This document shows positions 3,773 to 45,850 of a stretch of 64,000 bases of DNA, in pieces (position 1 is the stretch's first letter; every line of letters begins with the position of its first letter). Below the pieces are notes generated by a model, which had not been told where the DNA came from, made no database searches, and saw only the letters and a list, made by a program, of their open reading frames with translations. Both the position numbers and the translations under genes were made by a program. Origin of the DNA: Mercurialis annua (lineage: Eukaryota; Streptophyta; Magnoliopsida; Malpighiales; Euphorbiaceae); the NCBI RefSeq assembly GCF_937616625.2, contig NC_065572.1:68322653-68386652 (forward strand), in the 5' to 3' direction.

Positions 3773-3964
3773 TCAAGTTATAAATAAGTTAGCGAATAGT
3801 GTATTATAAGAAATTGACATTTATTAATATTGTTATTTTATTTTATTTTTATTAATTATGGTCCTACAAATCAAGTTTAAAGTTAAGGTCAATTTTCTTT
3901 TTTAAAAAAAAAGGATACAAAAAATGAAAGTGAAAATATTAAGGAAAATTTAGTAATCCTTTAA

Positions 3965-11163: not shown

Positions 11164-14100
11164 CTACTCATAACCGGCATCTACTTGAACACTGCCAGTT
11201 TGCCGTCCATAAAAGTTGCTCCCACCACGCCTTGCATGTCCCCTTTCTCTATACCTTCCACTTGAATTATGAAAACCCTCTTTTGAAGATTCAAAGTTAT
11301 TCATTTTGTTATTGTTTTGCAGCCCAACCGGCTGGTATTCATAGTGAGAGTTCTGCCTTTGTTTTTCCCTGATTGCTGGTACATTATGTTGCTGCTTAGC
11401 ATCTTTTCCAGATCCACTCCAATCCCCACGAGCATCATGCTCTCTACCAAACCGACTATTCGGATTCCCACCTTTACGAAACCCTGGGGACATGGATTGT
11501 TCTGGTTGAACATCCATATTTGAATGAGATGTATATTCAATGGGGCTACTGGGACGTCCTCTGGGTCCACCCATTCTTTTCTCTCTCCTAAGCTCTTGAT
11601 GTCCAACAGATGGAGCTTCTTCCATATTGCTCTTTTTGGATAGAGACTGGTCATGATGAGAGTGAGGCCTAGAAAGCTCCTTGTCCGGTTGAGGTAGCAA
11701 CCCCCTACCCTGAGAGGACTCCTTTTTATTAGTCCTACTGCCTTCAGAGCCAACATTCATACTGTTACTAGGCCGGCTTCCTCGTTGATTAGTGGCTGAA
11801 AATGATTGAGATTTAGGCTGCCAATGAGATGTTGATCGTTCGCCAGCAGCATGATTTTCTTTTGAAGCTAATAATGCGTCCATTTGGTGCATTTCAGAAG
11901 CTGTAGATTCAACAAACACCTTTTCAGTGTCCTGCCCACCAGTTGGCTTCTCTTCAGGATTATGATTGTATACTGAGGTTTTGTGACCTCTATGTGGATG
12001 CCGCTTTCCCCTCGCCGTCACACTCTCATCTTTTAAAGAAGGAACATTAACAGCTGTATCAGGAATTTCGGGCATGCTCCAGCCATCAGAAGCATCCCAT
12101 TCATAGCTTGGCTGCGCTTTCATGGAAGATGCATCAAACTTCTGGTGGTGAATGTCCTCAACTACATTTCGAGAACTCCTATGGTTTGCAGTTGACTCGG
12201 CCACACTCCGTTGGCGCCATGATCCATGCACTTTTTCAGGTCTATTCTGCCTGACATCCCCAGTCTTGGATTCTGCAAACGGCACCATCTTCCTTATTAC
12301 TGTACCAGAAGTTTGGGAGCTTTCAGCACCTTTAGAACCCGGCCTTTCAACAACCTCATCTGAAGCAGTCGGATTGCCTATAGAAACAACTGCCTGCTGA
12401 GACAGTTCCTTGGGTACAGGCTTTGGAATGTTTCTCTCCATTTCCGCCCTCTTATTTCTTGGATGACTCTGCACCTGCTGATCACTCTTTGATGACAAAA
12501 CCACAGCCTCAACTACAGTACTCTGATTGGCATCATCCAAAACCTCAGTTTTATTTTGTGAACGCACAGGAGCCCAGACAACAGCATCCCCACCGTGAAT
12601 TTTTTCAGCTGGTTTATTACCTTGTGGGTTTTTCATTGTCCTGCGAGGATGATTAGATTTCCACTGGCTATTAGTTCTAACGGGAATTTCTTCATTTGTC
12701 AATGATGAGCACGAGTCTGAGGACTGATTTGCATCCTTTGAGTCGGTTTGGTGCCAAGCTGAGTTAACATCCAGAATTGTTTCAGAAGACCTTGGTTTAA
12801 GACTTTCAACCGGAGCATCTAACACAGTAGTCTCTTTTGACAAAATTGATGAAGATGTTGCAGATAATGCCTCCTCCACTTTGTGCTTGTTCTTACCACT
12901 TCTGTTCTTCCTTCGATGAGGTGCTGAAGACTCTGCCATTACACCCTGGTTAACAGGCCTGTTTGACTCACAGTTTGGTATGGACTCGCAGGAAACACCC
13001 TTAGAAGATATAGCAGCATCAGTTGCAATATCAGAATGAACTTTTGATGCCTCAGTTGCAGAGGAAGACGATGACTTCTCATTTAGATTCTTCTCCAAGG
13101 TATTAAGCTTTTGTCTATAGCTTGTACGCTCCTGCTTAGAAGCACTACTGTCATGGACCCGCAGAGTACTACTGCCATGAACAGCATCAGGATTATTAGA
13201 ATCCTGCTGCGAAGACATCAATTGCTCATGGACCACAACAGAATCTTTGTGTGCAGTCTTTGGTGTCTCCACAGGTATATTGCTTGCACATTTCTCAACT
13301 TCATCCACAATTGTCTCAATGATAGGAGCAACAATCCTTGGGCTGGATTCCAGGGCTAAAGTTGATGCCTTAGGTTTTCCAGTAACCGCAGTTGGTGGAG
13401 CAGCAGTTGCGGATTCCTCGTGCCTAATCTGTGAGGTTTTATTTTGCTTGGAACCTAAAGATGGACTTGCGGTTCCAGCCTTGCTTGCAGCAATTGGTTG
13501 GACAAGATTTAAAGGTTCATCTTTCTTATTCTGAATAGTGCTAGTCGAAACGTTTTCCAACTTCTGAGTTGTACCTTCCCCCATTTGTGTTCGCCTGTTC
13601 AATTCCTCCAATTTAGCTAGAGCCTTGGCTCTTTGCTCTCTTGTCCGTTCTTCTTCTTCCTTCTCTCTCTCTTTAAGTCGCTTGGCTAGCTCTCTCACCT
13701 TGACACGCTGATTAAAGCAGCAGAATCATCAGAAAAATACAGACATACAATAACACAAATCGTAAAAAAGAATAATAACCTGGCTGTCGCTTGGGTCAGA
13801 CACAGGTTGAACAGACTCTACATCATCCTTTCCAGAAGTCTGTAACATAGAATTCTGGCTGATCTCTGCAGACATATGGCGTTGTCCATGAGAAACAGAA
13901 GATGTTTCGCCATGTACAGTTAATGCTACATTTTTGGGGTCTACGACTTGAGGCTTTTTCCTCCAGCCATCACCCTCTAGTGTATTAAATCTTGCTTTAC
14001 CACGAAGATCAGCTCTACCATGCGTGCCATGAGTTGGTCGCCTGTGATTATGCACATTAGTTTTTACTCAACAGTAGAATAACAAGTACAAGTACAATGA

Positions 14101-17100
14101 AGCATCCAAAGTATAAACCCACCTGGAAATAGCTGTTCCACTGACTACTGCAGAATCAAGACTCTTATCCCCAGCAGAGAAGTGGCCTTCATGGACAGAA
14201 GAGTTGATAACTCTAATGTCACAAGGCTTCTCATGAGATATAGAGTCAATACCAGCTTCATTTGTTGAACGACTGCCCATTGCATTACCAACTTGAAATT
14301 TGTTCTTAGGATCATCTGTGCTGGAAAAAGATCCAGGATATTGGCGGCCATCTGAAGCACGAGCTTTAGCATTTAAGCCTTCTATTTTCTGAATCAGACT
14401 AGAATCTTTTGGAGCTGCCAAAACTTCTATAGAAATAGAATCTGCATGTTCAAACTTTTTACCTGAACTGTCACCATATACACTCACGATCTGTACATTT
14501 TCAGGAGGCTTCACTTTCATAGGGGCAGCTTGATTGTCTACAGCCTCTGGTGAAGCTCCTTCACCGGCCACCATTCTTCTTGTATCTATCTCAATATCCT
14601 TCTTGTTGTCAGCTCTCCATCCATTTTCTCGTGATAGATTTCTTGGATGTTCGCCCTTCAAAGGATAAGGAGCATTAGTATCCCAGTTCGGCTCTTCATC
14701 TTTTCCCTCCCAATTATCATGATGTTTCAGAAGAACTTTGTGTGGTCCTCGAGTGTCTTGAGAATGAGCACCTTCCACTTGTTCAGATGCTATTGGCTTA
14801 CCGCTAGGACCGAATCCACTGGTTCTTCCATGGGAGTTACCAGGATCAGGACTAGGATATCTGTTGTAGGCTGTAGGGCCCATTGCCATACCCATATATG
14901 GAGCATCTCTTTCATTAGAATTGCAGTATCCCACAGGAGGGCCATAATATCCATCGTAAGGTACTGTGGGATAAAATCCAGGTCTAAGTGGCATTCCTGG
15001 ACGAATATAAGCATCATGCATATAAGGCCTGTACATATCTCCATTTTTTGGGTGGGAGCCTCTAGGGCCAGCCCCAGGTGGAGGAACAGGCTGTTGATTG
15101 GCCAGAGCAGGAGGGGGCATCTGCGGACGATAATACGTAAAAGGCTCCATGGGAAAGCCTCCGGGCGCAGCCAGGGGCCCAAATGGTGGACCTCCAGGAG
15201 GACCTCCTGGAGGTCCCCTATACCAAACACCGCCTGGATGATTATTTACAAGCGGACCATGCCAACCATCATGATGCTGAGGGGGAATATTAGGATTAGG
15301 GTATGTACGGGGATCAGCATGCCACTTCTCCACATTGGATCTGGCACCATCTTCTCCGTACAAAGAATTCTCTTGTCTCCAGGAACCTGCAGCTCCAATC
15401 TTTGCATTCACATTTACGGAAACGTCACCTTAATAACCAAAAAACCATATCAATAATTTAGTCACCACATCATGGATGCACAGTCATCACAGAAACTACA
15501 GTGCACACAAACCTTCAGAATCCCTGTTCCCTCCTCTCCCTGAAGCCACTCCAGCAGATGAACCTGGACGACCAGGAGAACCATAATCTGCAATAAGTTG
15601 TAAACAGATTGGAGAAAAGGAGAGGCATGAGTAGCATGTTAATTGGGTATTCTTAACAGATTCAGGCCTTTAGCACTAAACACTTATAGAACCAACATAA
15701 ATGACTCTCATTATAAATTAACCTCCACCAAATAAGCACCGTTGACACAAAGATTGCTATCAGAAATTAATGAAAGCTTCCAAAAGGCGAACAACTATAA
15801 AATAGACGTAACTATAAACACCTGAGAAAAAAATATATAGCATTCAGAGAACAACTCTAACTTTCGTAATGGGATTATGACAATCAATAAAAACTCTAGA
15901 ATCCGTAAATCAATTGAGGTAAGAGTAAAATGGCAAGTTATGTCGATGATGGGACAAGTACAGACTAACAGCTATGTCAAAGAGCTTTCCAATAATCTCC
16001 CAATAAAAGAGAAGAAAAAAACTCAATATCAAAGCAGTTTTAGAGAAAGTTGCGCACAATACCTTGAGAGTCTACGTTCTTTCCAGAATTGTCCTTTTCA
16101 GAACCAAGTGTTGGAAAATCTCCAGAAGTCAGAGAAAAACCGTCATTCTTAGAGGAAGACATTCCCTGCACGTAATAAAAGGCAAAGCTAAAAGGAGCAG
16201 TAAAAGAAGAAACAGAACATCCCCAAAACAACCAGTGATAGTTATATAAACAGTCTAAGAAGACCAGCTCATAATGATGGTGGTGTGGGAGAGTTGACTG
16301 AAAGAGGTTTTGTGATTGAAAATGAGAAATCTATCACAAATGCATAAGGAGAAAAAGAAGAAGTAAATAGTTGGATATTCTAATGCACTTCACAACTAAT
16401 GCATCTACTCTTTGCAGAGATAAAATCAGAAAATGTGTGCTTATTATGATGTCATAATGAATACCTATTATTGACTATCTCCCGCTTTCCTTCCGGTTTC
16501 TCCCATTCATAATGTATCCATCGAGGTTTCTAAATCAGTGGAGAGTGAATACTATAAATTCCATTCACACGCTTAACATAGTACCAAAAAAGCAAACAAA
16601 TCATTCTTCATATTGGCATTCAACAGTTTCTGGGACAATATACCAGTATTAGATTTAAATTCTTTTTGAATGCTATTCCAGGTATTCCTAACCAATCAAA
16701 TCAAACATTTTAATAATCAGCATCTTGCACCTCCAGGCATGTAACTAAATTGGGTTCTTCAATTTTTTCACAAGCTACTACAGGACTAAAAATCCCTCTT
16801 ACACAAAAAACTTATGTCATTATACCACAGGCTCTATCCATCACACATCAGCTAGCAAACCCTCAATTACAAGTATGTAAGGAAAACCTCATTTCAAAAC
16901 TAGATCAAAACTGTGATGTAACTTACCATCCGTTCTGTTGTTCCACTTCCTCCCCATGCCCCTGAGGTATCAGATAGAGATTCAGCAAAGCGGGATAATT
17001 GTGAGCTTCCAGGTCTTGTTTCTGCACTCCGAGGACGGGATGCTGTGTGTGAGGTCTGATTTGATGGTAATGCTCCTGAAGATGATGACGGTCTAGAATT

Positions 17101-18099
17101 TGGACCCCAGGCATTAGAAATAGGGTCATGGCCTCTATCACTACCAGCAGTCGACGGTCGAGTTCCAGTTCCACCAGATGAAGGGCGGCCACTAAGATGG
17201 GTTGGCGAACCATTGCCCCCATCAGTATTAGGAGAACCCCATGCATTTGGTGAAGAAGCAGACGATCTACTGCCCCAACTATGAGTACCCCTATTGTGCA
17301 GAAAGCACGTAGAAAATACAAATCGCTAATTTAACAGCAAGGAAGGCATTTTACGATAATGAAAATACTGATAATAGAACAGTTTAGAGTAAAAAAAAAA
17401 CCAAAGTGACATTAGAAAAACCTTGACCAGTAAATAAGCAACTCACTTGGGAACAATTTCAACATTTGGATCCAGACCGTGATTTTCTAACCTTGACACA
17501 ACAGCAAGAAAACATTAGGATTGCATGCGGTGGATAAACAAAATGAAACTCAGAAAATTAAAATACCTTTGGCTGGGTAAGTTTATAGGTTTTGGAACAG
17601 AAACTTTCCCCAACACTGTCATACCACCTCTTCTGGCAGGAGCCCATCTGCAATCAAATTAGTATTAGATACCAAAACCTCTATCTACAATTACACAAAC
17701 ATCTCATTTTTTTTATCTTCCTTAAATTTAAATAGAACAACATTTCAAAGTTGTTTTATAGTCCTAATTAACAAAATCCAGGATCTCAGCAACCAACTTT
17801 CCCAGGTTTCCCAAAGCTTTAAATAGATTTTAATAGTGAGTTTGATAAATTTGCAATCATAATAAGTAGAAAAATAAAAAAGAGAACACCAACTCTAAAT
17901 TACCATCCCCCAACACAGCCCATGTCCCCAACCCTTATTACAGACACACACATACATGCAACTGGAAATGCTTCAGGTTCACTTTGCAATGCACATTTTA
18001 CCTAAACAAACACTACAACTGAAGATAGTACAAAAGAACAACAAAATTAAACACAGAAATTTTATACCTTTTGTCTCCAGTTAACATACTTGATGTCAT
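11164..18099 (-). CDS. MOS1: MODIFIER OF SNC1 1 (MOS1)-like BAT2-N protein, complete copy
   Basis: Nine coding exons: 18068-18099, 17567-17647, 17447-17491, 16927-17290, 16063-16165, 15513-15587, 14123-15428, 13780-14041 and 11164-13707. All introns are GT-AG and the lengths sum to 1604 codons including stop. The protein starts MTSSMLTGDKRWAPARRGGM. Exons 2-4 encode the conserved BAT2-N region (GKVSVPKPINLPSQRLEN). Exon 5 carries the KNDGFSLTSGDFPTLGSEKD block. Exon 7 is Pro/Gly-rich. Exon 9 starts with a charged coiled-coil-like helix (RELAKRLKEREKEEEER) and continues as a long disordered Ser/Arg/Gly-rich tail. In Arabidopsis MOS1 is a nuclear protein that modulates expression of the NLR gene SNC1 and also affects the cell cycle and flowering; the same role here is inference. 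The start-codon exon has a 5' UTR part to 18144, and a non-coding first exon lies at about 19490-19640. This copy looks fully functional. Confidence 0.93.
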
Positions 18100-21584: not shown

Positions 21585-24500
21585 CTACTCATAACCAGCA
21601 TCTACTTGAACACCACGCCCATAAAAGTTGCTCCCACCTCGCCTTGCCTGGCCCTTTACTCTATACCTTCCACTTGAATTATGAAAACCCTCTTTTGGAG
21701 ATTCAAAGTTATTCAATTTGCTATTGTTTTGCGGCCAAACCCCTTTTCTCTGCCTTTGTCTATCCCTGGTTGCTGGTAAAGTATGTTGCTGCTTAGTGTC
21801 TTTTACAGATCCACTCCATTCCCCACGAGCATCATGCTCTCTACCAAATCGGCTATTCAAATTCCCACTTTTAGGAAACCCCGGGGACATGGAGTGCTCA
21901 GGTTGAACATCCACATTAGAATGAGATGTATATTCAATGGGACGTCCTCTGGGTCCACCCATTCTTTTCTCTCTCCCAGGCTCTTGATGTCCAACAGCTC
22001 GAGCTCCTTCCAAATTGTTCTTTTCGCGATGTGAGTGAGGCCCAAAAACATCCTTCTCTGGTTGAGGAAGCAACCCCCTACCCTGAGAAGAGGGAGACTC
22101 CTTTTTATTAGTCCTACCACCTTCAGAGCCACCTCCTACATTCACACTGTTACTAGGCCGGCTTCCTCGTTGATTAGTGGCTTGATATTTAGGCTGCCAA
22201 TGAGACGTTGATTGTTCCCCAGCAGCGTGATTTTCTTTTGAAGCTAATAATGGGTCAATTTCAGAAGCTGTGGATTCAACATACACCTTTTCGTTGTCCT
22301 GCCCACCACTCCTCATATCTTCAGGATTATTAGGATTGTAAAATACTGGGGTTTTGTGACCTCTATGTGGATGCCGCTTTCCCCTGGCAGTCGCACTCTC
22401 ATCTTTTAAACAAGGAACAATATTAACAGCTGTATCAGGAATTTCAGGCATGTTCCAGCCATCGGAAGCATCCCATTCAAAACTTGGTTGCACTGTCATG
22501 GAAGATAAATCGAACTTCTCAGCTACGTTTCGACAACTCCTATGATTTGCAGTTGACTCGGCCACAGTCCATTGCCGCCATGATCCATGCACTTTTTCAG
22601 GCCTATTCTGCCTGCCATCCCCAGTCCTGGATTCTGCAAATGGTACCGTCTTCCTTATTACTGTACCAGAAGTTTGGGAGCTCTCGGCACCTTTACAACT
22701 CGGCCTTTCAACAACCTCATCTGAAGTAGTCGGAACAATTGCTAGCTGAGACAGTTCCTTGGCTACAGGCTTTGGGAAGTACCTCTCCATTTCCGCCCTT
22801 TTATTTCTTGGATGACTCTGCACCTGCTGATCACTCTTTGAAGGAATAACCACAGCCTCAACTACAGTACTCTGATTGGCATCATCGCAAACCTCAGTTT
22901 TATTTTGTGATCGGACAGGAGCCCAGACAAGAGCATCCCCGCCGTGATTTTTTTCAGCTGGTTTATTACCTTGTGGGTTTTTAATTGTCCTGCGAGGATG
23001 ATTAGATTTCCACTGGCTATTTGTTGTTCTAACGAGAGTTTCTTCATTTGTCAATGATGAGCATGAGTCTGAGGACTGATTTGCATCCTTTGAGTCGGCT
23101 TGGGACCGAGCTGAGCTAAGATCCAAAATTGTTTCAGACGACCTTGGCTCAACCGGAGCGTCTAAAATAGTTGTCCCTTTTAATAATATTGAAGAAGAAG
23201 ATGCAAATAATGCCTCCTCTACTTCAGTGAATGACCCAAATAATAAACTAAAGCGTACAGGCTTTTGACTATAGCCTGTAGACTTCTGCATAGAAGCACT
23301 ACTGTCAGGGACCCGCAGAGTACTACTGCCAGGACCAGCATCAGAATTATTACCATCCTGCTGCAAAGAGATCAATTGCTCATGGACCACAACAGAATCT
23401 TTTCGTGCGGTCTTTGGTGCCTCCACAGGCGGGTCGCTACTTGTACTTGTAGATTTCTCAACTTTATCCACGATTGTTTCAGTGCTAGGAGCAACCATCC
23501 TTGGGCTGGATTTCAAGGCTGAAGTTGGTGTCCTTGATTTTCCAGCAACCACAGTTGGTGGATCAGCAGTTGTGGATTCCTCGTGTGAGGTTTTAATTTG
23601 CTCGGAACCTAAAGATGGACTTGGGGTTCCAGACTTGCTTGCAGGAATTGGTTGGAGAAGATTCAGAGGTTCGTCTTTTCTGTTCTGAATAGTGCTGGTA
23701 GAAACATCTTCCAACTTCTTCTGAGTTGTACCTTCCCCCGTTTGTGTTCGCCTGTTCAATTCCTCCAATTTAGCTAGAGCCTTGGCTCTCTGCTCTCTTG
23801 TCCGTTCTTCTTCTTCCTTCTCTCTCTCTTTGAGTCGCTTGGCTAGCTCTCTCAGCTTGACACGCTGATTAAAGCAGCAGAATCATCAGAAAAATACAGA
23901 CGTACAATAACACATCGTAGAAAAACAACGAAGATTAACCTGGCTGTCGCTTGGGTCAGACACCGGTTGGACAGACTCTATATCATCCTTCCCTGACATG
24001 GAATTCTGGCTGATCTCTGCAGAAATATTGCGTTGCCCATGAGGAACAGAAGATGTTTCACTATATACAGTCGATGCTACATTTTTGGGGTCTACAACTT
24101 GAGGCTTTTTCCTCCAGCCATCACCCTCTAGTGAATTAAATCTTGCTTCACCACGAAAATCAGCTCTACCATGCGTGGGTCGCCTGTGATATTCAGATTA
24201 GTTTTTATTCAATAGTAGAGTAACAATTACGAGTACAATGAAGCACCCAAAGTACAAACCCACCTGGAAATAGCTGTTCCACTGACTACTGCTGTGGAAT
24301 CGAGACCCTTATCTCCAGCAGAGAAGTGGCCTTCATGGGGTACATTGTTGATAACTCTGCTGTCACAAGAAGATATAGAGTCGATACCCGCTTCATTTGT
24401 GGAACGATTGCCCATTGCATAACCAACTAGAATTTTATTCTTAGGCTCCTCTGTACTGGAAACACGTTCAGGATATTGACGGCCATCTAAAGCATGCACT

Positions 24501-27500
24501 TGAGCATTTAAGCCCTCAATTTTCTGAATCAGACTAGAATCTTTTGGAGCTGCCAAAACTTCCATAGAAATAGTATCTGCATGTTCAAACTTTTTACCTG
24601 AACTGTCAACATATACTCCACTCAAGTTTGATACATGCTCAGGAGACTTCACTTTCATAGGGACAGCTTGATTGTCTACATCCTCAGGTGAAGCTCCTTC
24701 ACCAGCCATCATTCTTTTTGTATCTATCTCAATATCATTCTTGTTGTCAGCTCTCCATCCATTATCTCGTGACAGATTTCTTGGATGCTCACCCTTCACA
24801 GTATAAGGAGCATTAGTTTTTATGCAATCTTCCCAGTTCAGCTCTTCATCTTTTCCCTCCCAACTATCATGAAGTTTTGGAAGTACTTTGTTCAGTCCTT
24901 GAGAGTCTTGAGCTTCCACTTGTTCTGATGCGATTGGTTTACCAATAGGACCAAATCCACTGGTTCTTCCATGGAAGTTACCAGGATCAGGACCAGGATA
25001 TCTGTTATAGGCTATATGGCCCATTCCCATTCCCATAAATGGAGCATCTCTTTCATTAGAATTGCAGTATCCAACGAGAGGGCCAAAATATCCGTCGTAA
25101 GGAACTGTGGGATAAAATCCAGGTCTAAGTGGCATTCCTGGGCGAATATAAGCATCAATATCTCCATTTTTTGGGTGGGAGCCTCTAGGACCAGCCCCAG
25201 GTGAGGGAACAGGCTGTGGATTGGAAAGAGCAGGAGGGGGCATCTGCGGATGATAATAAGTAAAAGGTTCCATGGGAAAGCCTAATGGATGATTATTTAC
25301 AAGCGGACCATGCCAACCATCATGATGCTGATGGGGAATATTAGTATTAGGGAATGTAAGGGGATCAGCATGCCACTTCTCCACAGTGGATCTGGCTCCA
25401 TCTTCTCTGTACAAAGAATTTTCTTTTCTCCAGGAACCTGCAGCTCCAATCTTTGCATTCACATTTATGGAAACATCACCTTCATAACCAAAAAACCATA
25501 TAACTTATTTAGTCAACACTTTACAAAATGGATGCACAGTCATCATAGAAACTAGCATCCGTCATCAGGAAACCAAAATAAAGTGCACACAAACCTTCAG
25601 ATACCCTATTCCCTCCTCTTCTTGAAGCCACTCCAGCAGATGAACCTGGACGACCAGGAGACCCATAATCTGCAATAAGTTGTAAGCAAATTGGAGAAAA
25701 AGAGAGGCATGAATAGCATGTTATCATTGGGTATTCTCAACAGAATCAGGCTATTAGCACTAAAAACTAATAGAACCAACATAAATGACTCTCATTCTGA
25801 ATGGACCCTCCATCAAATAAGCATTGTTGACATAAAGATTGCTATCAGAAACTAATGAAAGCTTCCAATGGTGAAAAACTATAAAATAAATGTAACCATT
25901 CCCGAAAAAAAAAATTATAACATCCAGAGAACCCATACTTTTGTAATGATGGTATTATGCCAATCAATAAAAAACATACATGCATATATCAAAATAACTA
26001 GGTGAGCTATGCAATATTGAGGTAAGAGTATACTGGTTAGTTATTAAGATGACATGACAAGTACAGACTAATAGCTATTTCAAAGCGCTTTCAAATAATC
26101 TACCAGAAAAAAAGCGATAAAAAAGCTCAATATCAAAGCAGTTTTAAGGAAAGTTAGGCACACTACCTTGAGAGTCTACGTTCTTTCCAGAATTGTCTTT
26201 TTCAGAACCAAATAATGGAAAATCTCCAGAAGTCAGAGAAAACCCGTCATTCTTCGAGGAAGACATTCCCTGCATGTAATAAAAGGCCAAGCTAAAAGGA
26301 GCAGTACAAAAAGAAACAGAACAGTCCCAAAACGTCCAGTAAGAACAATATAAACAGTCCAAAAAGACCAGCTCATACTGAGTGTGTCCGGGAGAACTGA
26401 CAAAAGGAGCTGGCAAATGCCATTTAGATTTTAAATCAGTAGAGTGAATGCTATCAATTCCATTTACACACTTAACAGAGTACCAAAAATGCAAATACAC
26501 CATTCGTCATATTTGCATTCAACAATTTCTTGGTCAATATACCAGTATTAAATTTAAATTCTTTTTGAATGCTATTCCAGGTACCTGACCAATCAAATCA
26601 ACCATTTTAATAATCAGCATCTAGCACCTCCAGGCATTTAACTAAATTGGGTTCTTCAATTTTTTGACAAGCTACTACTGGGTTACAAATCTCTCCACAT
26701 AAAAAACTTATGTCATTATGACACAGTCTCTGCCAATCACCAGTCAGCTAGAAAACCCTCGATTACAAATATTGAGGAAAACTTCACTTCAAAACTAGAT
26801 CATACCGTGATGTAGCTTACCATCTTTTCTGTTGTTCCGGATCCTCCACATGCCCCCGAGGTATCAGACAGAGATTCAGCAAAGCGGGATAATTGTGAGC
26901 TTCCAGGTCTTGTTTCTGCACTCCGAGGACGGGATGTTGTGTGTGAGGTCTGATTTGATGACAATGCTCCAGAAGATGATGATGGTCTAGAATTCGAACC
27001 CCAAGCATTAGAAATTGGGTCATGGCCACTATCACTACCAGCAGTCGTCGGTCGAGTGCCAGTTGCACCAGATGCAGGGAGGCCACTAAGATGGCTTGGC
27101 GAACCATTGCCCCCATCAGTATTAGGAGAACCCCATGAATTTGGCGAGGAAGCAGACGTTCTACGGACCCAATTGTGAGTACCCCTATTGTGCACAAAGT
27201 ACATAGAAAACAATACAAATCGCTAATTTAACAGCATGAAAGGCATTTTACCGATAATGAAATTAATTATAATAGAACAGTTTCGTGTAAAAAATAAAAA
27301 CCAAAGTGACATTAGAAAAACCTTGACTGGTATATAAGCCACTCACTTGGGAACAATTTCAACAGTTGGGTCCAAACCGTGCTTCTCTAACCTTGATACA
27401 ACAACAAGAAAGCATTAGGAGCACATGCGGTGGACCAACAAAATGAGACAATTCAGAAAAATAATATACCTTTGACTGGGTAAGTTTATAGGTTTTGGAA

Positions 27501-30500
27501 CAGCAACTTTCCCCAACACTGTCATGCCACCTCTTCTCGCAGGAGCCCATCTGCAATCAAAGAAGTATTAGATACCAAAACCTCTATCTTTAATTACACT
27601 GAGATCTCATTATTTTATCTTTCTTAGATTTAAATATAAAAACATTTCAAAGTAGTTTTATAGTCATAATTAATAAAGGCCAGGATCTCAGCAACCAACT
27701 TCCCCAGGTCTCCCAAAACTTTATATAGATTTTAATAGTGAATCGAATAGATTTCCAATCATCATGAATTAGAAAAATAAAAACGAGACAACAAACAATA
27801 AACTACAACCCTTTGCTATAATCATCCTTTCCGGAAGGCCGTGACATGGAATTCTGGCTGATCTCTAGAGAAATATGACGTTGCCCATGAGAAACAGAAG
27901 ATGTTTCACTATGTACAGTTGATGCTACATTTTTGGGATCTACAGCTTGAGGCTTTTTCCTCCAGCCATCACCCTCTAGTGTATTAAATCTAGCTTCACC
28001 ACGAAGATCAGCTTTACTATGCGTGGGTCGCCTGTGATAATTCACATTAGTCTTTACTCAATAGCAGAGTAGTAATTACGAGTACAATGAAGTATCCAAA
28101 GTACAAACCCACCTGGAAATAGCTGTTCCACTGACTACTGCTGTAGAATCGAGACTCTTATCCACAGCAGAGAGGTGGCCTTCATGGAGTACATTGTTGA
28201 TAACTCTGTTGTCACGAGAAGATATATAATCTATACCAGCTTCAATTGTGGAACGACTGCCCATTGCATTACCAACTAGAATTTTATTTTTAGGTTCCTC
28301 TGTGCTGGAAACACGTCCAGGATATTGAAGGCCATCTGAAGAATGAGCTTTAGCATTAAAGCCTTCTATTTTCTGAATCAGACTAAAATCTTTTGGAGCT
28401 GCCAAAACTTCAGTAGAGATAGAATCTGCATGTTCAAACTTTTTACCTGAACTGTCACCATATACTACACTCACGTTTGATACATGCTCAGGAGGCTTCA
28501 CTTCCATAGGGACAGCTTGATTGTCTACAGCCTCAGGTGAAGCTCCTTCACCAGCCACCCTTCTTCTTGTATCTATCTCAGTATCATTCTTGTTGTCAGC
28601 TCTGCATCCATTTTCTCGTGATAGATTTCTTGGATGCTCCCCCTTCAGAGGATAAGGAGCAGTACTTTTTATGCAATCTTCCCAGTTCAGCTCTTCATCA
28701 TTTCCCTCCCAACTATCATACTCTTTAGGAAGAACTTTGTATGGTCCTCGAGAATCTTGAGGTTCCAGTTGTTCTGATGCAATTGGCTCACCAATAGAAC
28801 CAAATCCACTGGTTTTTCCATTGGAGTTACCAGAATCAGGACCAGGAAATCTGTTATAAGCTGTAGGGCCCATTGCCATTCCCATAAATGGAGCATCTCT
28901 TTCATTAGGATTGCAGTATCCCACGAGAGGGCCATAGTATCCATCGTAAGGAACTGTGGGATAAAATCCAGGTCTAAGTGGCATTCCTGGGCGAATATAA
29001 GCATCAATATCTCCATTTTTTGGGTGGGAGCCTCTAGGACCAGCCGCAGGTGGGGGAACAGGCTGTGGATTGGCAAGTGCAGGAGGGGGCATCTGCGGAC
29101 GATAATACGGAAAAGGTTCCATAGGAAAGCCAGCTGGATGATTATTTACAAGTGGACCATGCCAACCATCATGATGCTGAGGGGTAATATTACGATTAGG
29201 GTATGTACGGGGATCACCATGCCACTTCTCCACAGTGGATCTGGCTCCATCTTCTCCGTACAAAGAATTCTCTTTTCTCCACGAACCTGCAGCTCCAATC
29301 TTTGCATTCACGTATATAGAAACATCACCTTCATAACCAAAAAACCATATTACTAATTTAGTCACAACTTTGCATCGTGGATGAACAGTCACCGCAGAAA
29401 CAAACATCCGTCATCAAAAAACCATAATCAAGTGCACACAAACCTTCAGAATCCCTGTTACCTCCTCTTCCTGAAGCCAATCCAGCAGATGAACCTGGAC
29501 GACCAGGACAGCTATAATCTGCAATAAGTTGTAAATAAATTGGAGAAAAAGAGAGGCATTAGTAGCACGTTATAATTGGGTATTCTTAACAGAGTCAGGC
29601 TTTTAGCACTAAACACTAATAGAACCAACATAAATGACCTCCATCAAATAAGCATTGTTGACATAAATATTGTTATCAGAAACTAATGAAAGCTTCCAAT
29701 AGCGAACTATAAAATAAATGTAACAATTAACACCAGAGAAAAAAAATCTACAACATCCAGAGAACAACCCTTACTTTTGTAATGATTGTATCATGCCAGT
29801 CAATAAAAAATATACATGCATAAATCAAAATAACTAGGTGAACTATGCAATATTGAGGTAAGAGTAATATGGTAAGTTACGCAGATAACGTGACAAGTAC
29901 AGACTAATGGCTATTTCAAAGTACTTCCCAATAATTTCCCAGAAAACAAGGAGATGAAAAGGCTTAATAGAAAAGCAATTTTAAGGAAAGTTGGGAACAA
30001 TACCTTGAGAGTCTACGTTCTTTCCAGAATTATCTTTTTCAGAGTCAAATGTTGGAAAATCTCCAGAAGTCGGAGAAAACCCGTCATTCTTAGAGGAAGA
30101 CATTCTCTGCATGTAATAAAGGCAAAGCTCTAATAGGGGCAGTAAAAAAAGAAACAGAAAATTCCAAAATCAACCAGTAAGAACTATTTAAACAGTCTAG
30201 AAAGACCAGCTCATACAGATTGTGGTGCATGAGAGTTGACAGAAGGAGCTGGCAAATACCATTTATGTTTTTGTGATTGAAAAAGAGAAATCTATCAGTT
30301 TGAAAACATCAATGCAATTCAAAAAAGGGCTTAAAAGGTAAAAAAAACATGAGGAAAAAGAAGAACCAAATAGCTGATATTCTAATGCAGTTGACAACTA
30401 ATGCATCTACGCTTTGCAGAGATAAAAATCTGAAAATGTGGGCTTATGGTGATATCATATTGAATACCTATTCTTTACTACCTCCTGCTTTCCTTCCCAG

Positions 30501-33500
30501 TTTCTCCCATTCATAATGTATCCATCAAGGATTCTAAATCAGTGGAGAGTGAATGCTATAAATTCAATTTACATGCTTAACAGAGTACCAAAATGCAAAT
30601 ACATCATTCATCATATTTGCATTCAACAATTTCTTGGTCAATATACCAGTATTAAATTTAAATTCTTTTTGAATGCTTTTCCAGGTATTCTTGACCAATC
30701 AAATCAACCATTTTAATAATCAGCATCTAGCACCTCCAGGCATTTGACTAAATTGGGTTCTTCAATTTTTTGACAAGCTACTGCTGGGCTACAAATCCCT
30801 CCCGCACAAAAAACTTATGTCATTATACCACAGGCTCTGCCAATCACCAGTTAGCTAGCAAACTCTCGATTACAAATATTTAAGGAAAACTTCATTTCAA
30901 AACTAAATAAAAACCATGATGTAGCTTACCATCTTTTCTGTTGTTTCGTTTCCTCCCCATGCCCCAGCGGTGTCCGATAGTGATTCAGCAAAGCAGGATA
31001 ATTGTGAGCATCCAGGTCTTGTTTCTGCACTCCGAGGACGGGATGTTGTGTTTGAGGTCTGATTCGATGACAATGCACCAGAAGATGATGATGGTCTAGA
31101 ATTCGAACCCCAAGCATTAGAAATAGGATCATGAACTCTATCACTACCAGCAGTTGCCGGTCGGTTGCCAGTTCCACCAGATGAAGGGCGGCCACTAAGA
31201 TGGGTTGGCGAACTATTGTCCCCTTCAGTATTAGAAGAACCCCACGCATTTGGTGAGGAAGCAGGCGATCTACTGCCCCAACTGTGAGTAACCCTGTTGT
31301 GCACAAAGCACGTACAGAACAATACAAATCGCTAATTTAACAGCATGAAAGGCATTTTACTGATAATGAAAATAGTCATAATAGACCAGTTTCTTGTAAA
31401 ACATAGAATAAAGTGACATTAAAAAAACCTTGACTAGTAAATAAGCCACTCACTTGGGAACAATTTCAACTTTTGGGTCCAGACAGAGATTTTCTAACCT
31501 TGACACAACAGCAAGAAAGCATTAGGACAGCATGCGGTGGATCAACAAAATGGAACAAACTCAGAAAATGAAAATACCTTTGACTGGGTAAGTTTATAGG
31601 TTTTGGAACAGCAACTTTCCCCAATACTGTCATACCACCTCTTCTTGCAGGAGCCCATCTGCAATAGAAATAGTATTAGATACCAAAACCTTTATCCATA
31701 AATTACGCTGAGATCTCATTTTTTAATCTTCCTTAGATTTAAATATAAAATAATTTCAAAGTAGTTATTTAGTCATAATTTAAAAAGCCCAGGATCTCAG
31801 CAACAACTAATCCAGGTCTCCTAAATCTTTAAATAGATTTTAATAGTGAATTGAATAAATTTGCAATCATCATAAAGTAGAAAAATAAAAAAGAGACAAC
31901 CAACTCTAAACTACCACCCTTTGCAATAATCATCCTTTCCTGAAGGCCGTGACATGGAATTCTGGATGATCTCCCCAGATATATGGCGTTGCCCATGAGA
32001 AATAGAAATAGATGTTTCACCATGTCCAGTTGCTGCTACATTTTTGGGGTCTACAACTTGAGGCTTGTTCCTCCAGCCATGACCCTCTAGTGTATTAAAT
32101 CTTGCTTCACTACGAAGATCAGCTCTACCATGCGTGGGTCGCCTGTGATTATGCACATTAGTTTTTACTCCATAGTAGAGTAACAATTACGAGTACAATG
32201 AAGCATCCAAAATACAAACCCACCTGGAAATAGCTGTTCCACTGACTACTGCTGTAGAATCGAGACTCTTATCCCCAACAGAGAAGCGGCCTTCATGGGG
32301 TACAGTGTTGATAACTCTGCTATCCCGAGCAGATATAGAGTCAATACCGGCTTCATTTGTTGAACGACTGCCCATTGCATAACCAACTTGAATTTTATTC
32401 TCAGGCTCCTCTGTGCTGGAAACACATCCAGGATATTGACGGCCATCTGAATCATGAGCTTTAGCATTAAAGCCTTCTATTTTCTTAATCAGACTAGAAT
32501 CTTTAGGAGCTGCCATAACTTCCATATAAATAGAATCTGCATGTTCAAACTTTTTACCTAAACTGTCACCATATACTACACTCACGTTTGATACAGGCTC
32601 AGGAGACTTCACTTTCATAGGGACAGCCTTACTGTCTGCAGCCTCAGGTGAAGCTCCTTCATCAGCCACCGTTCTTCTTCTATCTATCTCAATATCCTTC
32701 TTGTTCTCAGCTCTCCATCCATTTTCTCGTGATAGATTTCTTTGATTCTCCCTCTTAGGGACATTAGTTTTTATGCAATCTTCCCAATTCAGTTCTTCAT
32801 CTTTTCCCTCCCAACTATCATGCTGTTTCGAAAGAACTTTGTATGGTCCGCGAGAGTCTTGAGCTTCCATTTGTTCTGATGTGACTGGCTTACCACTAGG
32901 ACCAAATCCACTGGTTCTTCCATGGGAGTTACCAGGATGAGGACCAGGATCTCTGTTATAGGCTGTAGGTCCCATTGGCATTCCCTTAAATGGAGCATCT
33001 CTTTCATTAGACTTGCAGTATCCCCCTAGAGGGCCATAATATCCGTCATAAGGAACTGTGGAATTAAATGCAGGTCTAAGTGGCATTCCTGGACGAATAT
33101 AGGCATCAATATCTCCATTTTTTGTTTGGGAGCCTCTACGACCAGCCTCAGGTGGAGGAACAGGCTGTGGATTGGCAAGAGCAGGAGGGGGGATCTGCGG
33201 ACGATAATACGTATTAGGTTCCATGCGAAAGCCTCTTGGATGATTATTTACAAGCGGACCATGCAAACAATCATGATGCTTAGGGGGAATATTAGGATCA
33301 GCATGCCACTTCTCCACATTGGATCTGGCACCATTGTCTCCATACAAAGAATTCTCTTTTCTCCAGGAGCCTGCAGCTCCAATCTTTGCATTCACATTTA
33401 TGGAAACATCACCTTAATTACCAAAAAACAATATTACTAATCCAGTCACAACTTTGCATCATGGATGCACAGTCATCACATAAACTAGCATCCATCATCA

Positions 33501-35970
33501 TAAATACAAAATAAAGTGCACACAAACCTTCAGAATCCCTGTTCCCTCCTCTTCCTGAAGCCACTCCAGCAGATGAACCTGGACGACCAGATGATTCATA
33601 ATATGCAATAAGTTTTAAACATATTGGAGAAAAAGAGAGGCATGAGAAGCATGTTATAATTGGGTATTCTTAACAGATTCAGGCTTTTAGCACTAACAAC
33701 TAATAGAACCGACATAAATGACTCTCATTATGAATGGACCTCCATCAAATAAGCATTGTTGACATAAAGATTGCTATCAGAAACTAATAAAAGCTTCCAA
33801 TGGCAAACAACTATAAAATAAACGTAACTTAACACCCGAGAAAAAAAATCTATAACTTCTAGAGAACAACCCTTGCTTTTGTAATGATGGTATCATTCCA
33901 ATCAATAAAAAAATATACATGCATAAATCAAACTGGCTGAGCTATGCCATATTGAGGTAAGAGTAATATGGTAAGTTCTGAAGATGATGTGACAAGTACA
34001 GAGTAATAGCTATTTCAAAGTGCTTCCCAATAATCTCCCAGAAAACAAGGAGATGAAAAATGCTCAACATCAAAGCTGTTTTAAGGAAGTTCGGCACAAT
34101 ACCTTGAGAGTCTACGTTCTTTCCAGAATTGCCTTTTTCAGAACCAAATAATGGAAAATCTCCAGAAGTCAGAGAAAACCCGTCATTCTTAGAGGAAGAC
34201 ATTCCCTGCATGTAATAAAAGGCCAAGATAAAAGCGGCAGTACAAAAAGAAACAGGACATTCCCAAAACAACCAGTAAGAACTATATAAACAGTCTAAAA
34301 AGACCAGCTCATAATGAGTGTGGTGTAGGAGAACTATATAAACAGTCTAAAAAGACGAGTTGGCAAATACCATTTAGATTTTTGTGATTGTAAAAGAAAC
34401 ATCTATCAGTTTGAAAACATTAATGCAATTCAAAAAAAAGGGTTTGAAAGGTAAAAAACATGAGGAAAAAGAAGCAAATAGTTGGATATTGTGATGCACT
34501 TGACAAGTAATGCATCTACTCTTTGCAGAGATAAAAATCGGAAAATGTGTGCTTATGATGCCATAATAAACGATTTTAATAATCAGCATCTAGCACCTCC
34601 AGGCATTTAACTAAATTGGCTTCTTCTTTTTTCACGAGCTACTACTTTACAACAAATCCCTTCCACATAGAAAACTTATGTCATTATACCACAGGCTCTG
34701 CCAATCACCAGTCAGCTAGCAAACCCTCGATTACAAATATTAAGAAAAACTTCATTTCAAAACTAGATCAAAACCGTGAAGTAGCTTACCATCTTTTCGG
34801 TTGTTCCGGACCTTCCCCATGCCCCTGAGGTATCAGACAGAGATTCAGAAAAGCGGGATAAATGTGAGCTTCCACGTCTAGTTTCTGCACTCCACGGACG
34901 GGATGCTGTTTGCGAGGTCTGATTTGATGACAATGCTCCGGAAGATGATGACAGTCTAGAATTCAAACCCCAAGCATTAGAAATAGGGTCATGGCCTCTA
35001 TCACTACCACCGGTCGTCGGTCGAGTGCCAGTTCTACCAGATGAAGGGAGGCCACTAAGATGGCTTGGCAAACCATTGCCCCCTTCAGTAATAGGAGAAC
35101 CCCATGCATTTGGTGAGGAAGCAGACGATCTACGGACCCAACTGTGAGTACCCCTGTTGTGCACAAAGCACGTACAGAATAAATCGCTAATTAAACACCA
35201 TGAAAGGCATTTTACTGATAATGAAATTAGTGATAATAGAACAGTTCTGTGTAAAAAAAAAGTGACATTAGAAAAACCTTGACTAGTAAATAAGCCACTC
35301 ACTTGGGAACAATTTCAACCTTTGGGTCCAGACCGTGATTTTCTAACCTTGACACAACAGCAAGAAAGCATTAGGACAGCATGCGGTGGATCAACAAATA
35401 AACAAACCCAGATAATGAAAATACCTTTGACTGGGTAAGTTTATAGGTTTTGGAACAGCAACTTTCCCCAACACTGTCATACCACCTCTTCTTGCAGGAG
35501 CCCATCTGCAATTAAAATAGTATTAGATACCAAAACCTCTATACATTAATTACACTGAGATCTCATTTTTTTAATCTTCCTTAGATTTAAATATAAAAAC
35601 ATTTCACAGTAGTTATATATTCATAATTAACAAAGGCCCAAGATGTCAGCCACCAACTTTGAACTTTCCCAGGTCTCCCAAAACATTAAATAGATTAAAA
35701 TAGTGAAGTGAATAAATTTGCAATCTTCATAAAGTAGAAAAATAAAAAAGAGACGACCAACTCTAAACTACCACCCTCCAACACAACCCATGTCCCCACC
35801 TCTTATTACAGACACAGATACACATACATACATTACATGCAACTGGAAATGCTTCAGGTTCACTTTGCAATGCACATTTTACAACTGAAGATAGTACACA
35901 AGGACAACAAAATTTAACACACAAAAACTCCATACCTTTTGTCTCCAGTTAACATACTTGATGTCATCAT
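21585..35970 (-). CDS. MOS1-like gene, copy 2, with exons 2-7 triplicated
   Basis: The start exon is 35936-35970 (two tandem ATGs). Block 1 exons 2-7: 35425-35505, 35303-35347, 34790-35153, 34103-34205, 33528-33602, 32224-33412. Block 2: 31578-31658, 31454-31498, 30930-31293, 30004-30106, 29444-29518, 28113-29328. Block 3: 27470-27550, 27347-27391, 26821-27184, 26167-26269, 25595-25669, 24264-25479. Then exon 8 (23940-24183) and exon 9 (21585-23864). All are open. Exons 1 and 7 both end in phase 2 with AG and exon 2 starts with A, so exon 7 can join the next exon 2 as Arg-Trp-Ala-Pro. This gives 8184 nt, 2728 codons including stop, with three BAT2-N regions. Oddities: block 1 exon 6 has lost its acceptor AG. 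Truncated exon 8 copies remain at both junctions and stop if included. Exon 9 is 88 codons shorter than in copy 1. The joined model is inference; truncated products or separate transcripts are alternatives. Confidence 0.6.
23982..27812 (-). repeat. MOS1 internal repeat, block 3 (3'-most)
   Basis: A 3.8-kb unit running from mid exon 8 back through exon 2 and part of intron 1. It is the only block whose exon 8 is complete and leads on into exon 9. Relative to block 2 it lacks about 260 bp in the intron near 26400. Shared deletions in exon 7 (the Gly/Pro-rich GPPGGPPGG segment of copy 1 is missing in all three blocks) show that the blocks derive from one another after the split from copy 1. Confidence 0.9.
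27813..31920 (-). repeat. MOS1 internal repeat, block 2 (middle)
   Basis: A 4.1-kb unit carrying exons 2-7 plus a truncated exon 8 (to 28031). The truncated exon keeps its acceptor but lost its donor half; reading through gives Lys-Gly-Leu-stop at 27803-27805. The left edge is the intron-1/exon-8 junction with the filler TTGCTATA. Exon 3 has substitutions at the otherwise conserved His-Gly (Leu-Cys here), and exon 6 reads DYSCPGRPG. These hint at relaxed constraint. Confidence 0.9.
31921..35777 (-). repeat. MOS1 internal repeat, block 1 (5'-most)
   Basis: A 3.9-kb unit next to the genuine exon 1. Its exon 6 acceptor reads TTGCAT|ATTAT instead of TTGCAG|ATTAT. A TCCAG 24 bases further in (exon start 33578) would restore splicing in frame with loss of eight codons; skipping the 75-nt exon is also frame-neutral. 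The truncated exon 8 (to 32142) ends Lys-Gly-Trp-stop at 31911-31913. The filler is TTGCAATA at 31921-31928. Confidence 0.9.
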
Positions 35971-39464: not shown

Positions 39465-41582
39465 TCAGTAAGTTGCTATTTTGCTATTTTCACAACCATC
39501 TACACCATTTGCACCAACATCAGCCCAAACTTCATTGACGCGCCCAATAAAACGGAACGGAGCATCATACTGAGCAATGGAGTAGCCATATTTACTTTCT
39601 GCAGCACTCGTGTTTCCCCACGAAGACCTGCTCAAGCTGACCGCAAGCTCTTTAGCTTGTTTGATAATGTTATCATCCTTTGCAAATCCTGAGAATGTCC
39701 TCACAGCAACACAATGACTGCCCCACGTATAAGGTTTCAGGTGCAATACGGGGAGAGGGATGGGCGGATCGGCTTGGAATTTCACCGGTAAATAGAATGA
39801 AACATAGTAGGACGACGACTTAAAGGGACCGGCTCCTGGGACTATGCTAGTCACAACAGGCGCAGTCATTGGAATCCTCGTCCAATTTAGATTGGCACCT
39901 TGAATGAACTGGAACAATCTGAGAGGACAACGAAGAGCAAACTTGAATTTCTGAACGAAAAATCGGATTGTGAATAAAAGGAAATTGAACCTACTGAGAT
40001 TGTAAATCCCTCTATTGACATAAGCATTAATCAACATGCTATTGCAGCTACAGAAGTAGAAATTTCCGGAAAATAGTATATAGTTTTTGCTTGAATCATT
40101 TTTTTGTAAGAAAAACCTAAGCAAGTTCTACTTCTCTACTTAGATGGATGTAAAAGACAACAATATATCTAGTCTGATCAACAGATGGATGTGCAAAAAC
40201 AGAATTGAACCGACAAATTTGGTTTTGTTTGGTCAGACATTATAAAAAAAAAAGTATTATTCTGTTAAGTTAAAATGTTTCAGTACAAACTGAACCGAAA
40301 ATTAACTGAATCAATTTTTTGGTTTAGTTTGGTTACATCGAGTTGGTTTAGAGAAAAATCACAATTTCGGTTGAATTCCAAATGAATGCACACCCTAATG
40401 ACAAAGACAGCACAGACTGGTCACTAACCAAATTCAATAAGCTTAAGAGCCTGTTTGGATCAATTCTAGTATAGAATTCACTTCAATTCATTTCATTTCT
40501 AAATGAATTCTACATGAAAATCATTTGAAAAATGAATTTTTATATTTGATTTTCCGAATTTTAAATATGAAATAATATTCAATTAAGTGAAATAAATTGA
40601 ATATTGCATTTCGAGTATAAATATAAATTTAAATTATGAAAATTCATTTGAACCAAAAACATATCTTGTAGAAATTCAATTGAATTCCATAAAAATTGTG
40701 AAATTCATTTGAACCAAACAGACTCGTTTAAGTCTTGGATAGAAACAAAATTAAGACCTTATTAGACACAGAACAGACAAGAACATTTACATGAGAAAGT
40801 ATGGATATATATGATAGTAATTACTAATTAAGCAGGATTATCATGAACCACTACAATGCCAAAGTGCAAAATTTCTATTAAACATTCAAAAGCATTAAAA
40901 TTCACACTTTCGTCTGTTTGAAAATCAAAAGATACATTCTTTTATTTTATTTCATCAACAATTTAGCCATTATGTCCATTTGATGTTAGTCAATCAAGTC
41001 AAAAAAATTAAATTAAAAAACAAAAAAATTAAAGAAAAATGATATGGTCCTCACTTTTATTTGTGTCAATGATGTTTGAAAACTAATTTACCCACTACTA
41101 CAAAAAGACGGAATGACTAAATTGTTGACGGAAACAAGATAGACCAACATCACTGTGAATTATGACATATATATGGAGGCTTCAGAGTCATTTGCTCAAA
41201 AATCATTTAGGAACCTCATAATCCCAAGCACAAATAATAAATAACTCATCATCATTCATGATAAAAGACTCTAAGAAAACCCATAATCAAAAACATTAGC
41301 GAGCTCATATCGACAAGGATCGCAAATAAGTTTACTAAATTAATTGTCTTACCTGTGAAAGCCGTCCAAGGTAGCTTTTTCAAATGAAATTTCAGAAACA
41401 GGGCCAGTCATCCATGTGGATTCATGGTATAATCTCACTTCAAAATCCGATTCTTTGTGTATTACCTCGTACTGGGGTTTCTCAATCGCTTTGATTTGCA
41501 GCAGCAAATTTAGCAAACTCATCACAGTAATCAACAACCTACCTTTCTCCATTTTTAATTCCTCTGCGTCCTTCTCTTGCAA
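39465..41582 (-). CDS. SOUL haem-binding family protein
   Basis: Two exons, 41353-41582 and 39465-39918, with a 1434-nt GT-AG intron in phase 2; 228 codons from the first ATG, or 217 residues from the second ATG at 41550-41552. The second start gives a clean secretory signal (MEKGRLLITVMSLLNLLLQI), so it is preferred. The SOUL core follows: EKPQYEVIHKESDFEVRLY, then NLNWTRIPMTAPVV (the RIxMTxPV motif of the family), then VRTFSGFAKDD and FRFIGRVNEVW near the C-terminus. SOUL/HBP proteins bind tetrapyrroles; those with a signal peptide are probably secretory or vacuolar. The physiological role is not known from sequence. A broken paralogue lies at 45175-45850. A MITE starts only 23 bp upstream of the first ATG. 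Confidence 0.9.
40176..40406. repeat. GAACCGAA-rich dispersed repeat in the SOUL intron
   Basis: Lies in the SOUL intron. It is rich in AACCGA and CGGTT words (GTACAAACTGAACCGAAAA). Similar patches lie at about 44735-45090, 55850-56120, 58400-58690 and 62860-62965. All begin near GTGCAAAAACC or GTGCATA-like words. It is an unclassified plant interspersed family with no coding. Confidence 0.5.
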
Positions 41583-45174: not shown

Positions 45175-45850
45175 CTATATGCTATTTTTACAACCATCCT
45201 CAGGAAACGCATCAATATCAGCCCAAACTTCATGTACACGTCCAATAGAGCGGAACGGAGGATCATACTGAGCAATGGCGTAGCCCCATCTACCTATTGA
45301 AGCACTTATGTTGCCCCACGACGACCTGCTCAAGCTGACGGAAAGCTTATCAGCTTCTTCAAAAATGTTATCATCCTTAGCAAATCCTGAGAATGTCCTC
45401 ACAGCAAGGCAAAGACTGCCCCGCATATAAGGTTTCAGGTTCAATTCGGGGAGGGGGATGGGCGGATGGGCTCAGAATTTCTCTGGCAAATAGAGTGAAA
45501 CATAGTAACCCCAACCATTAAAGAGACCGTCCTGTGGGAATATGATAGTCACAACAGGAGCAGTCATCGGAATCCTCGTCCTGTTTAGATTTGCACCTTC
45601 AATGAATTGGAACAATCTCTACTATATACTAATTTTATAAAAAAAAATCTAGGTCTCATAAGTCATATCCAAGCACATTTATGATAAGAGATTTAAGAAA
45701 AACCAAAGAATCATAAATAAATTGTTACCCGTGAGAGCCCTTCAAGGTAGCATTTTGGAAGGAATTAATTTCAGAAAAAGGACCGGTCATCCAGGTATAA
45801 TCTCACTTCAAAATCTGACCCTTTGTGCATTACCTCGTACTGGGGTTTCT
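45175..45850 (-). pseudogene. SOUL haem-binding pseudogene
   Basis: A degraded tandem copy of the SOUL gene at 39465-41582. Exon 2 similarity runs from about 45617 to 45175 and still encodes NRTRIPMTAPVV and VRTFSGFAKDDN. It has an in-frame TGA (45472-45474) where the intact gene reads Gln. The exon 1 remnant (about 45730-45850) keeps EKPQYEV but has lost about 11 nt after the Arg-Leu-Tyr codons, causing a frameshift. The codon bridging the intron is also changed, most of the signal peptide region is gone, and the intron is reduced to about 110 bp. These multiple lesions make it non-functional. Confidence 0.88.

What the first reader, a model, noticed from the sequence alone, without database searches (positions are those of the whole stretch)
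21585..35970. A MOS1 gene with exons 2-7 triplicated and still in frame: possible three-module giant protein
Eighteen repeated exons are all open. Five of the six exon types keep identical lengths across blocks; exon 7 is 1216, 1216 and 1189 nt, a 27-nt in-frame difference. The block is symmetric (phase 2 to phase 2), and exon 7 ends with the same AG as exon 1, so exon 7 to next exon 2 splicing rebuilds an Arg codon. The joined model is 2728 codons with three BAT2-N modules, against one in copy 1. I know of no MOS1 protein of this architecture.
Basis: partly seen in the sequence, partly recalled or inferred. Interest (0 to 1): 0.88.

Follow-up and report, generated by a model that had tools for sequence, protein, structure and literature searches.

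The report
MOS1 gene copy with tripled module

Summary
The triplication is real. The window is Mercurialis annua. It holds an ordinary MOS1 (copy 1, identical to NCBI's 1603-aa protein) and a tandem paralogue (copy 2) with three modules whose introns differ by about 12%, so not an assembly expansion. The repeat unit runs from intron 1 into exon 8, so modules A and B also carry a truncated exon 8; and exon 6 of module A has lost its acceptor (CAG to CAT). NCBI already predicts the giant protein (LOC126671227 isoform X2, 2868 aa). Frame is strictly kept (0 stops where intron rates predict 12.9; no frameshifting exon indel), while missense change is only partly restrained, also at sites conserved in other plants. 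This fits one mRNA carrying all three modules, with relaxed constraint in copy 2. Of 20 relatives of 1839 aa or more found, only spinach is also multi-module. I saw no RNA reads.

The parts
35936..35970 (-). Exon 1 coding part of copy 2 (MMTSSMLTGDK + AG)
   Evidence: Model identical to P0121
32224..35505 (-). Module A, exons 2-7: 35425-35505, 35303-35347, 34790-35153, 34103-34205, 33528-33578 (inner acceptor; homologous boundary 33602 has lost its AG), 32224-33412
31918..32142 (-). Truncated exon 8 of module A (exon 8'), 225 nt, ends at GG|GTGGTA just past the duplication junction
   Evidence: Included in P0121; junction sequence
31921..31928 (-). 8-nt filler at the A/B junction between exon-8 sequence and intron-1 sequence
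28113..31658 (-). Module B, exons 2-7: 31578-31658, 31454-31498, 30930-31293, 30004-30106, 29444-29518, 28113-29328
27810..28031 (-). Truncated exon 8 of module B (exon 8'), 222 nt, ends at GG|GTTGTA
   Evidence: Included in P0121
27813..27820 (-). 8-nt filler at the B/C junction, same layout as at A/B
24264..27550 (-). Module C, exons 2-7: 27470-27550, 27347-27391, 26821-27184, 26167-26269, 25595-25669, 24264-25479
23940..24183 (-). Complete exon 8 (after module C), 244 nt
21585..23864 (-). Exon 9, the single C-terminal exon of copy 2, with the stop
11164..18099 (-). Copy 1: ordinary one-module MOS1, nine coding exons, 1603 aa
   Evidence: Identical to NCBI P0001

Best explanation
Copy 2 is a tandem paralogue of MOS1 in which one illegitimate duplication (intron 1 to inside exon 8) was followed by one more copy of the same unit, giving three head-to-tail BAT2_N modules. 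It is expressed as one mRNA with all three modules (shown: a public gene model identical to the window, and a preserved frame; inferred: that RNA reads back it). The duplication junction supplied a new 5' splice site in the right phase, so the truncated exon 8 became a usable exon and each repeat stayed phase 2 to phase 2. Because all three modules lie upstream of the single C-terminal exon, a stop or frameshift in any of them would destroy the whole protein and is removed, while missense change in a redundant module is only partly removed. Copy 1 keeps the ancestral constraint; copy 2 is a fast-evolving giant (inferred: a multivalent N terminus for MOS1-type partners, or drift toward a new role).
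For: P0121 in NCBI, reproduced letter for letter from 23 exons with GT-AG introns. Three BAT2_N stretches. 0 stops in the blocks against 12.9 expected from intron rates, or 7.1 if nonsense were accepted as readily as missense (P about 0.0009); none of 900 neutral simulations of the whole coding sequence had zero stops. Exon indels between blocks: 2, 2 and 0, all multiples of three, while 13 of 17, 20 of 21 and 13 of 17 intron indels are not. Missense 95 against 174 expected, silent 46 against 54. Exon 2 identical in protein in A, B and C. Both A/B and B/C junctions have the same layout. A+B+C form one group, 99% ultrafast bootstrap.
Against: No RNA reads were seen; the NCBI model comes from the same species' assembly and is a prediction, and only 1 of its 4 cluster members was visible. 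Exon 6 of A lost its acceptor, as in decay. The donor of exon 8' in B is the weakest of 30 by U1 pairing. Blocks depart from 9 of 60, 8 of 59 and 5 of 59 columns at least 99% conserved in 121 orthologues, copy 1 from 0 of 59, so old residue-level constraint is partly lost. Taken one at a time at rate 0.045, a neutral block shows no stop in 11, 8 and 12 of 300 runs, so the frame argument rests on the three blocks together.
Confidence: 0.72

Rival explanations
1. One reading: exon 7 of A and B is spliced straight to exon 2 of the next block, skipping truncated exon 8, and the 2727-2728-codon protein is the main product.
For: All joins are in frame and the exon 7 donor is the strongest of the gene; the exon-8' donors are weak or average.
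Against: The one NCBI isoform seen includes both exons 8'. The exon 8' acceptors are intact and exons 8' are open in A and B.
Confidence: 0.1
2. Modules are alternatives: exon 1 is spliced to exon 2 of A, B or C, and most proteins carry one or two modules.
For: Every block is symmetric (phase 2 to phase 2), so any choice stays in frame. The NCBI cluster holds 4 sequences.
Against: Modules that can be skipped should tolerate nonsense about as well as missense; 0 stops against 7.1 expected on that basis. The isoform seen has all three.
Confidence: 0.1
3. Copy 2 is a decaying duplicate, an early pseudogene, whose open frame is luck or a leftover.
For: omega about 0.6 between blocks, loss of the exon 6 acceptor in A, changes at columns conserved in other plants, exon 9 also faster than in copy 1 (63 changes derived in copy 2, 37 in copy 1, 44 unclear).
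Against: Stops and frameshifts absent where neutral drift predicts several; bootstrap intervals of omega lie below 1; exon 2 unchanged in protein.
Confidence: 0.12
4. Assembly artefact: extra blocks made by misassembly of a repeat.
For: Tandem repeats are a known source of misassembly (general knowledge).
Against: Blocks differ by about 12% in introns and carry private indels; HiFi at 58-fold, QV 52.8 (PMC11157195).
Confidence: 0.02

Closest known systems
Plant MOS1 (MODIFIER OF SNC1 1), e.g. copy 1 here (P0001) and Ricinus P0002
   Same: Same exon plan, same N-terminal BAT2_N region and C-terminal exon; copy 2 lies in tandem with copy 1
   Different: One module and about 1600 aa, against three modules and 2868 aa; copy 1 has fewer missense changes
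Spinach SOVF_203920 isoform B (P0126, 2706 aa)
   Same: The only other hit with more than one NLPS core motif, 4 of them; three BAT2_N stretches
   Different: Different layout: the core motif lies once at the start and three times close together (positions 29, 389, 431, 473); KIEGLN motif twice; no SGDFP match. Also only a prediction, not examined at DNA level
Animal PRRC2 (BAT2) proteins
   Same: The BAT2 N-terminal family name, PF07001 (relation recalled, not tested here); PRRC2 promotes leaky scanning in translation (PMC10123092, start of abstract and one passage seen)
   Different: Not compared with copy 2 by any search

Membership tests
Plant MOS1 family | BAT2_N domain (PF07001) near the N terminus | tested here: met
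   P0121 54.9 bits, three stretches, cut-off 25
Plant MOS1 family | Homology over the whole protein, including the C-terminal exon | tested here: met
   Exon 9 aligns to copy 1 over 747 codons, dN 0.10
Plant MOS1 family | A single N-terminal module, about 1600 aa in angiosperms | tested here: not met
   Three modules; of 153 proteins held, only P0121 and P0126 have more than one NLPS motif. This is the usual layout, not a formal criterion of the family
Plant MOS1 family | Residues conserved across orthologues are kept | tested here: inconclusive
   At columns at least 99% conserved in 121 orthologues: copy 1 departs at 0 of 59, blocks at 9 of 60, 8 of 59, 5 of 59. With 16 orthologues and fully invariant columns: copy 1 at 7 of 132 and module C at 15 of 132
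Plant MOS1 family | Acts on SNC1-type gene expression with TCP partners and binds MAD2 | not testable with these tools
   Reported for Arabidopsis MOS1 (PMC7584024, passages)

The most novel reading that the evidence does not exclude
Copy 2 makes a trivalent MOS1 protein with a role of its own: selection guards the reading frame of all three modules and the BAT2_N core exon of each while letting much of the rest diverge, and a splice site created by the duplication junction turned a broken exon into the linker between modules.
Probability: 0.3. Interest if true: 0.7.

Novelty: new variant of a known kind. Interest (0 to 1): 0.47.

Why it matters
It is a clean natural case of intragenic segment triplication in a conserved plant regulator, with the one-module gene still beside it. 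It shows how a repeat with an edge inside an exon can stay in frame by gaining a splice site at its own junction, and how selection can keep a frame open while residues drift. A three-module and a one-module version in one genome would let one test what module number does in a MOS1/BAT2 protein.

Tried and rejected
An assembly artefact was rejected on 12% intron divergence with private indels. Separate genes for each block were rejected: by the exon map B and C have no exon 1 and A and B no exon 9. The self-BLAST for repeats inside P0126, P0121 and P0001 printed no off-diagonal row, even for P0121 where repeats are certain, so it is not used. The exon-9 conservation classes rest on only 5 orthologues and are replaced (16 orthologues); the Ricinus polarity count is kept. 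In one search the match column and the bar are shifted by one base; only its pairing energies and junction strings are used. Rfam and tRNA scans of the window found nothing. Paper searches showed in their listings no description of this gene; LOC126671227 gave 0 papers; the library holds only open-licence PMC papers. Rows dropped: 68 of 613 codons without a majority codon, and 11 multi-hit codons of A, B and C (no stop among them, since one search counts none in the blocks). Lists were capped: the best 120 of 441 and of 287; one search listed all 20, but only the 2593 candidates sharing most words were scored. The neutral rates were set by me (0.03, 0.045, 0.06 per site).

Full report
What is there. 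The window is nuclear DNA of Mercurialis annua: the one-module gene at 18099-11164 (minus strand) translates to exactly the NCBI protein 'MODIFIER OF SNC1 1 [Mercurialis annua]', 1603 aa (P0001). The window's assembly has 451 Mb in 55 contigs. P0001 and P0121 are listed on a contig of 76,280,018 bases; the genome paper gives that as its longest scaffold and lists LG3, not the X, at 76.28 Mb (PMC11157195, parts 1 and 2 of 4 read). Next to copy 1, 3.5 kb away, lies a second copy, 35970-21585, whose exons 2-7 occur three times.

Check of the observation. Exons 2-6 have one length each in all three blocks and exon 7 is 1189, 1216 and 1216 nt in blocks A, B and C (gene order). Two things were missed. 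First, the repeated unit runs from a point in intron 1 to a point inside exon 8. Blocks A and B therefore end in a truncated exon 8 with an intact acceptor, followed by an 8-nt filler and intron-1 sequence. The A/B and B/C junctions have the same layout, so one illegitimate event made the first junction and the unit was copied once more (inference). Second, exon 6 of block A has lost its acceptor: TTGCAT where copy 1, B and C have TTGCAG.

The predicted protein. A search with the joined model found P0121, 'uncharacterized protein LOC126671227 isoform X2 [Mercurialis annua]', 2868 aa, standing for a cluster of 4 sequences. I reproduced it letter for letter from 23 exons with GT-AG introns. These donors lie in intron-1 sequence just past the filler, so the junction made an exon end that did not exist before, in phase 2, giving ...GKDDYCKG-WAPARR... 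and ...GKDDYSKG-WAPARR.... In a simple U1 pairing calculation the new donor of A (-6.3 kcal/mol) is equalled or beaten only by the eight donors of exons 4 and 7 and one exon 5 donor, and that of B (-3.9) is the weakest of 30. If the new donors are not used, a stop follows at once (KGW-stop in A, KGL-stop in B). From memory, NCBI names several isoforms only with transcript evidence; I could not see that evidence.

Age and relationship. Modules A, B and C form one group (99% ultrafast bootstrap), with copy 1 beside them and the eight other species' proteins used outside; the order among A, B and C is unresolved. Introns differ by 11.8-12.1% between blocks and 14.4-14.8% from copy 1; dS is 0.14-0.16 and 0.16-0.20. 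The gene duplication thus came first and the triplication soon after. No rate was calibrated here; with a recalled 7e-9 per site per year it would be roughly ten million years.

Selection on the frame. Across the three blocks 0 stops were seen where intron substitution rates predict 12.9, or 7.1 if nonsense were accepted as readily as missense (P about 0.0009). None of 900 neutral simulations of the whole coding sequence, 300 at each of three rates, had zero stops; single blocks alone had none in 11, 8 and 12 of 300 runs. Exon indels between blocks number 2 (A-B), 2 (A-C) and 0 (B-C), all multiples of three; of intron indels 13 of 17, 20 of 21 and 13 of 17 are not.

Selection on residues. Missense changes private to one block: 95 observed against 174 expected; silent 46 against 54. 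Omega between blocks is 0.58-0.62, bootstrap intervals 0.44-0.89. Copy 1 has relatively fewer missense changes (19 to 25 silent, against 95 to 46; Fisher P 0.005). At columns at least 99% conserved among 121 orthologues, copy 1 departs at 0 of 59 and the blocks at 9 of 60, 8 of 59 and 5 of 59. Block-private changes hit such columns about as often as variable ones: 6, 6 and 2 of 59 against 20, 16 and 17 of 268. With a smaller set of 16 orthologues and fully invariant columns, copy 1 departs at 7 of 132 and module C at 15 of 132, and in exon 9 at 7 and 11 of 67, so the contrast is weaker there. Exon 2, the BAT2_N core, shows no amino-acid difference among A, B and C over 28 codons. By Ricinus, 65, 66 and 56 differences from copy 1 are derived in A, B and C against 23, 23 and 19 in copy 1 (30, 24 and 29 unclear); for exon 9 it is 63 against 37, 44 unclear. 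Against my reading: relaxed constraint of this kind, and the lost acceptor, are also what an early pseudogene shows.

How it most likely works. A guarded frame with residues less guarded is expected if all three modules sit in one mRNA upstream of a C-terminal exon that matters: a stop anywhere kills everything, a missense change in one of three similar modules does little. That favours inclusion of all modules over modules that can be skipped (inference). The product would be a MOS1-type protein with three N-terminal BAT2_N modules and one C-terminal part. Arabidopsis MOS1 acts on SNC1 expression with TCP factors and binds MAD2 (PMC7584024, passages); rice MOS1 affects heading and grain size (PMC9655188, start of abstract and passages). 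Whether the giant competes with, assists or replaces copy 1 is unknown; a multivalent N terminus is the simplest guess.

Comparison. A third search was arranged so that only proteins of about 1839-5850 aa were admitted. Of its 20 hits, 2 carry more than one NLPS core motif: P0121 (3) and spinach P0126 (4); of the 153 proteins then held, the same 2; 2 of the 20 (P0147, P0152) show none by this pattern. P0136 (Thlaspi) carries other Pfam domains and looks like a fusion. So the architecture is rare among what was found and arose at least twice if both predictions are right.

Verdict. Real, already predicted by NCBI without a name, corrected here in its splicing, a new variant of a known kind. Transcript proof and function remain open.

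Noticed in passing
window 23224-23261 against 12881-13107: In exon 9 of copy 2, about 226 nt of copy 1 are replaced by about 37 unrelated nt, a net in-frame loss of 189 nt (63 codons) with a new stretch KPVRFSLLFGSFTE; the frame stays open.
   Followed up: partly
P0126 (spinach, 2706 aa): A second multi-module MOS1-like prediction, with the core motif four times (29, 389, 431, 473), in an unrelated family of plants.
   Followed up: partly
window 4923-6551, minus strand: Long open frame with a RING-H2-like cysteine/histidine pattern, probably an ATL-type E3 ligase (label from memory, no family search run).
   Followed up: no
window 39468-40127 and 45178-45471, minus strand: Two similar frames that look like tandem SOUL heme-binding protein genes (label from memory); the DNA of the two stretches is about 83% alike.
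   Followed up: no
window 3945-4275 and 57169-57495: A stretch of about 330 nt, 89.5% identical, at both ends of the window; possibly a dispersed repeat.
   Followed up: no
window 63046-63420, plus strand: Open frame that looks like the end of a neprosin-type protein (label from memory).
   Followed up: no
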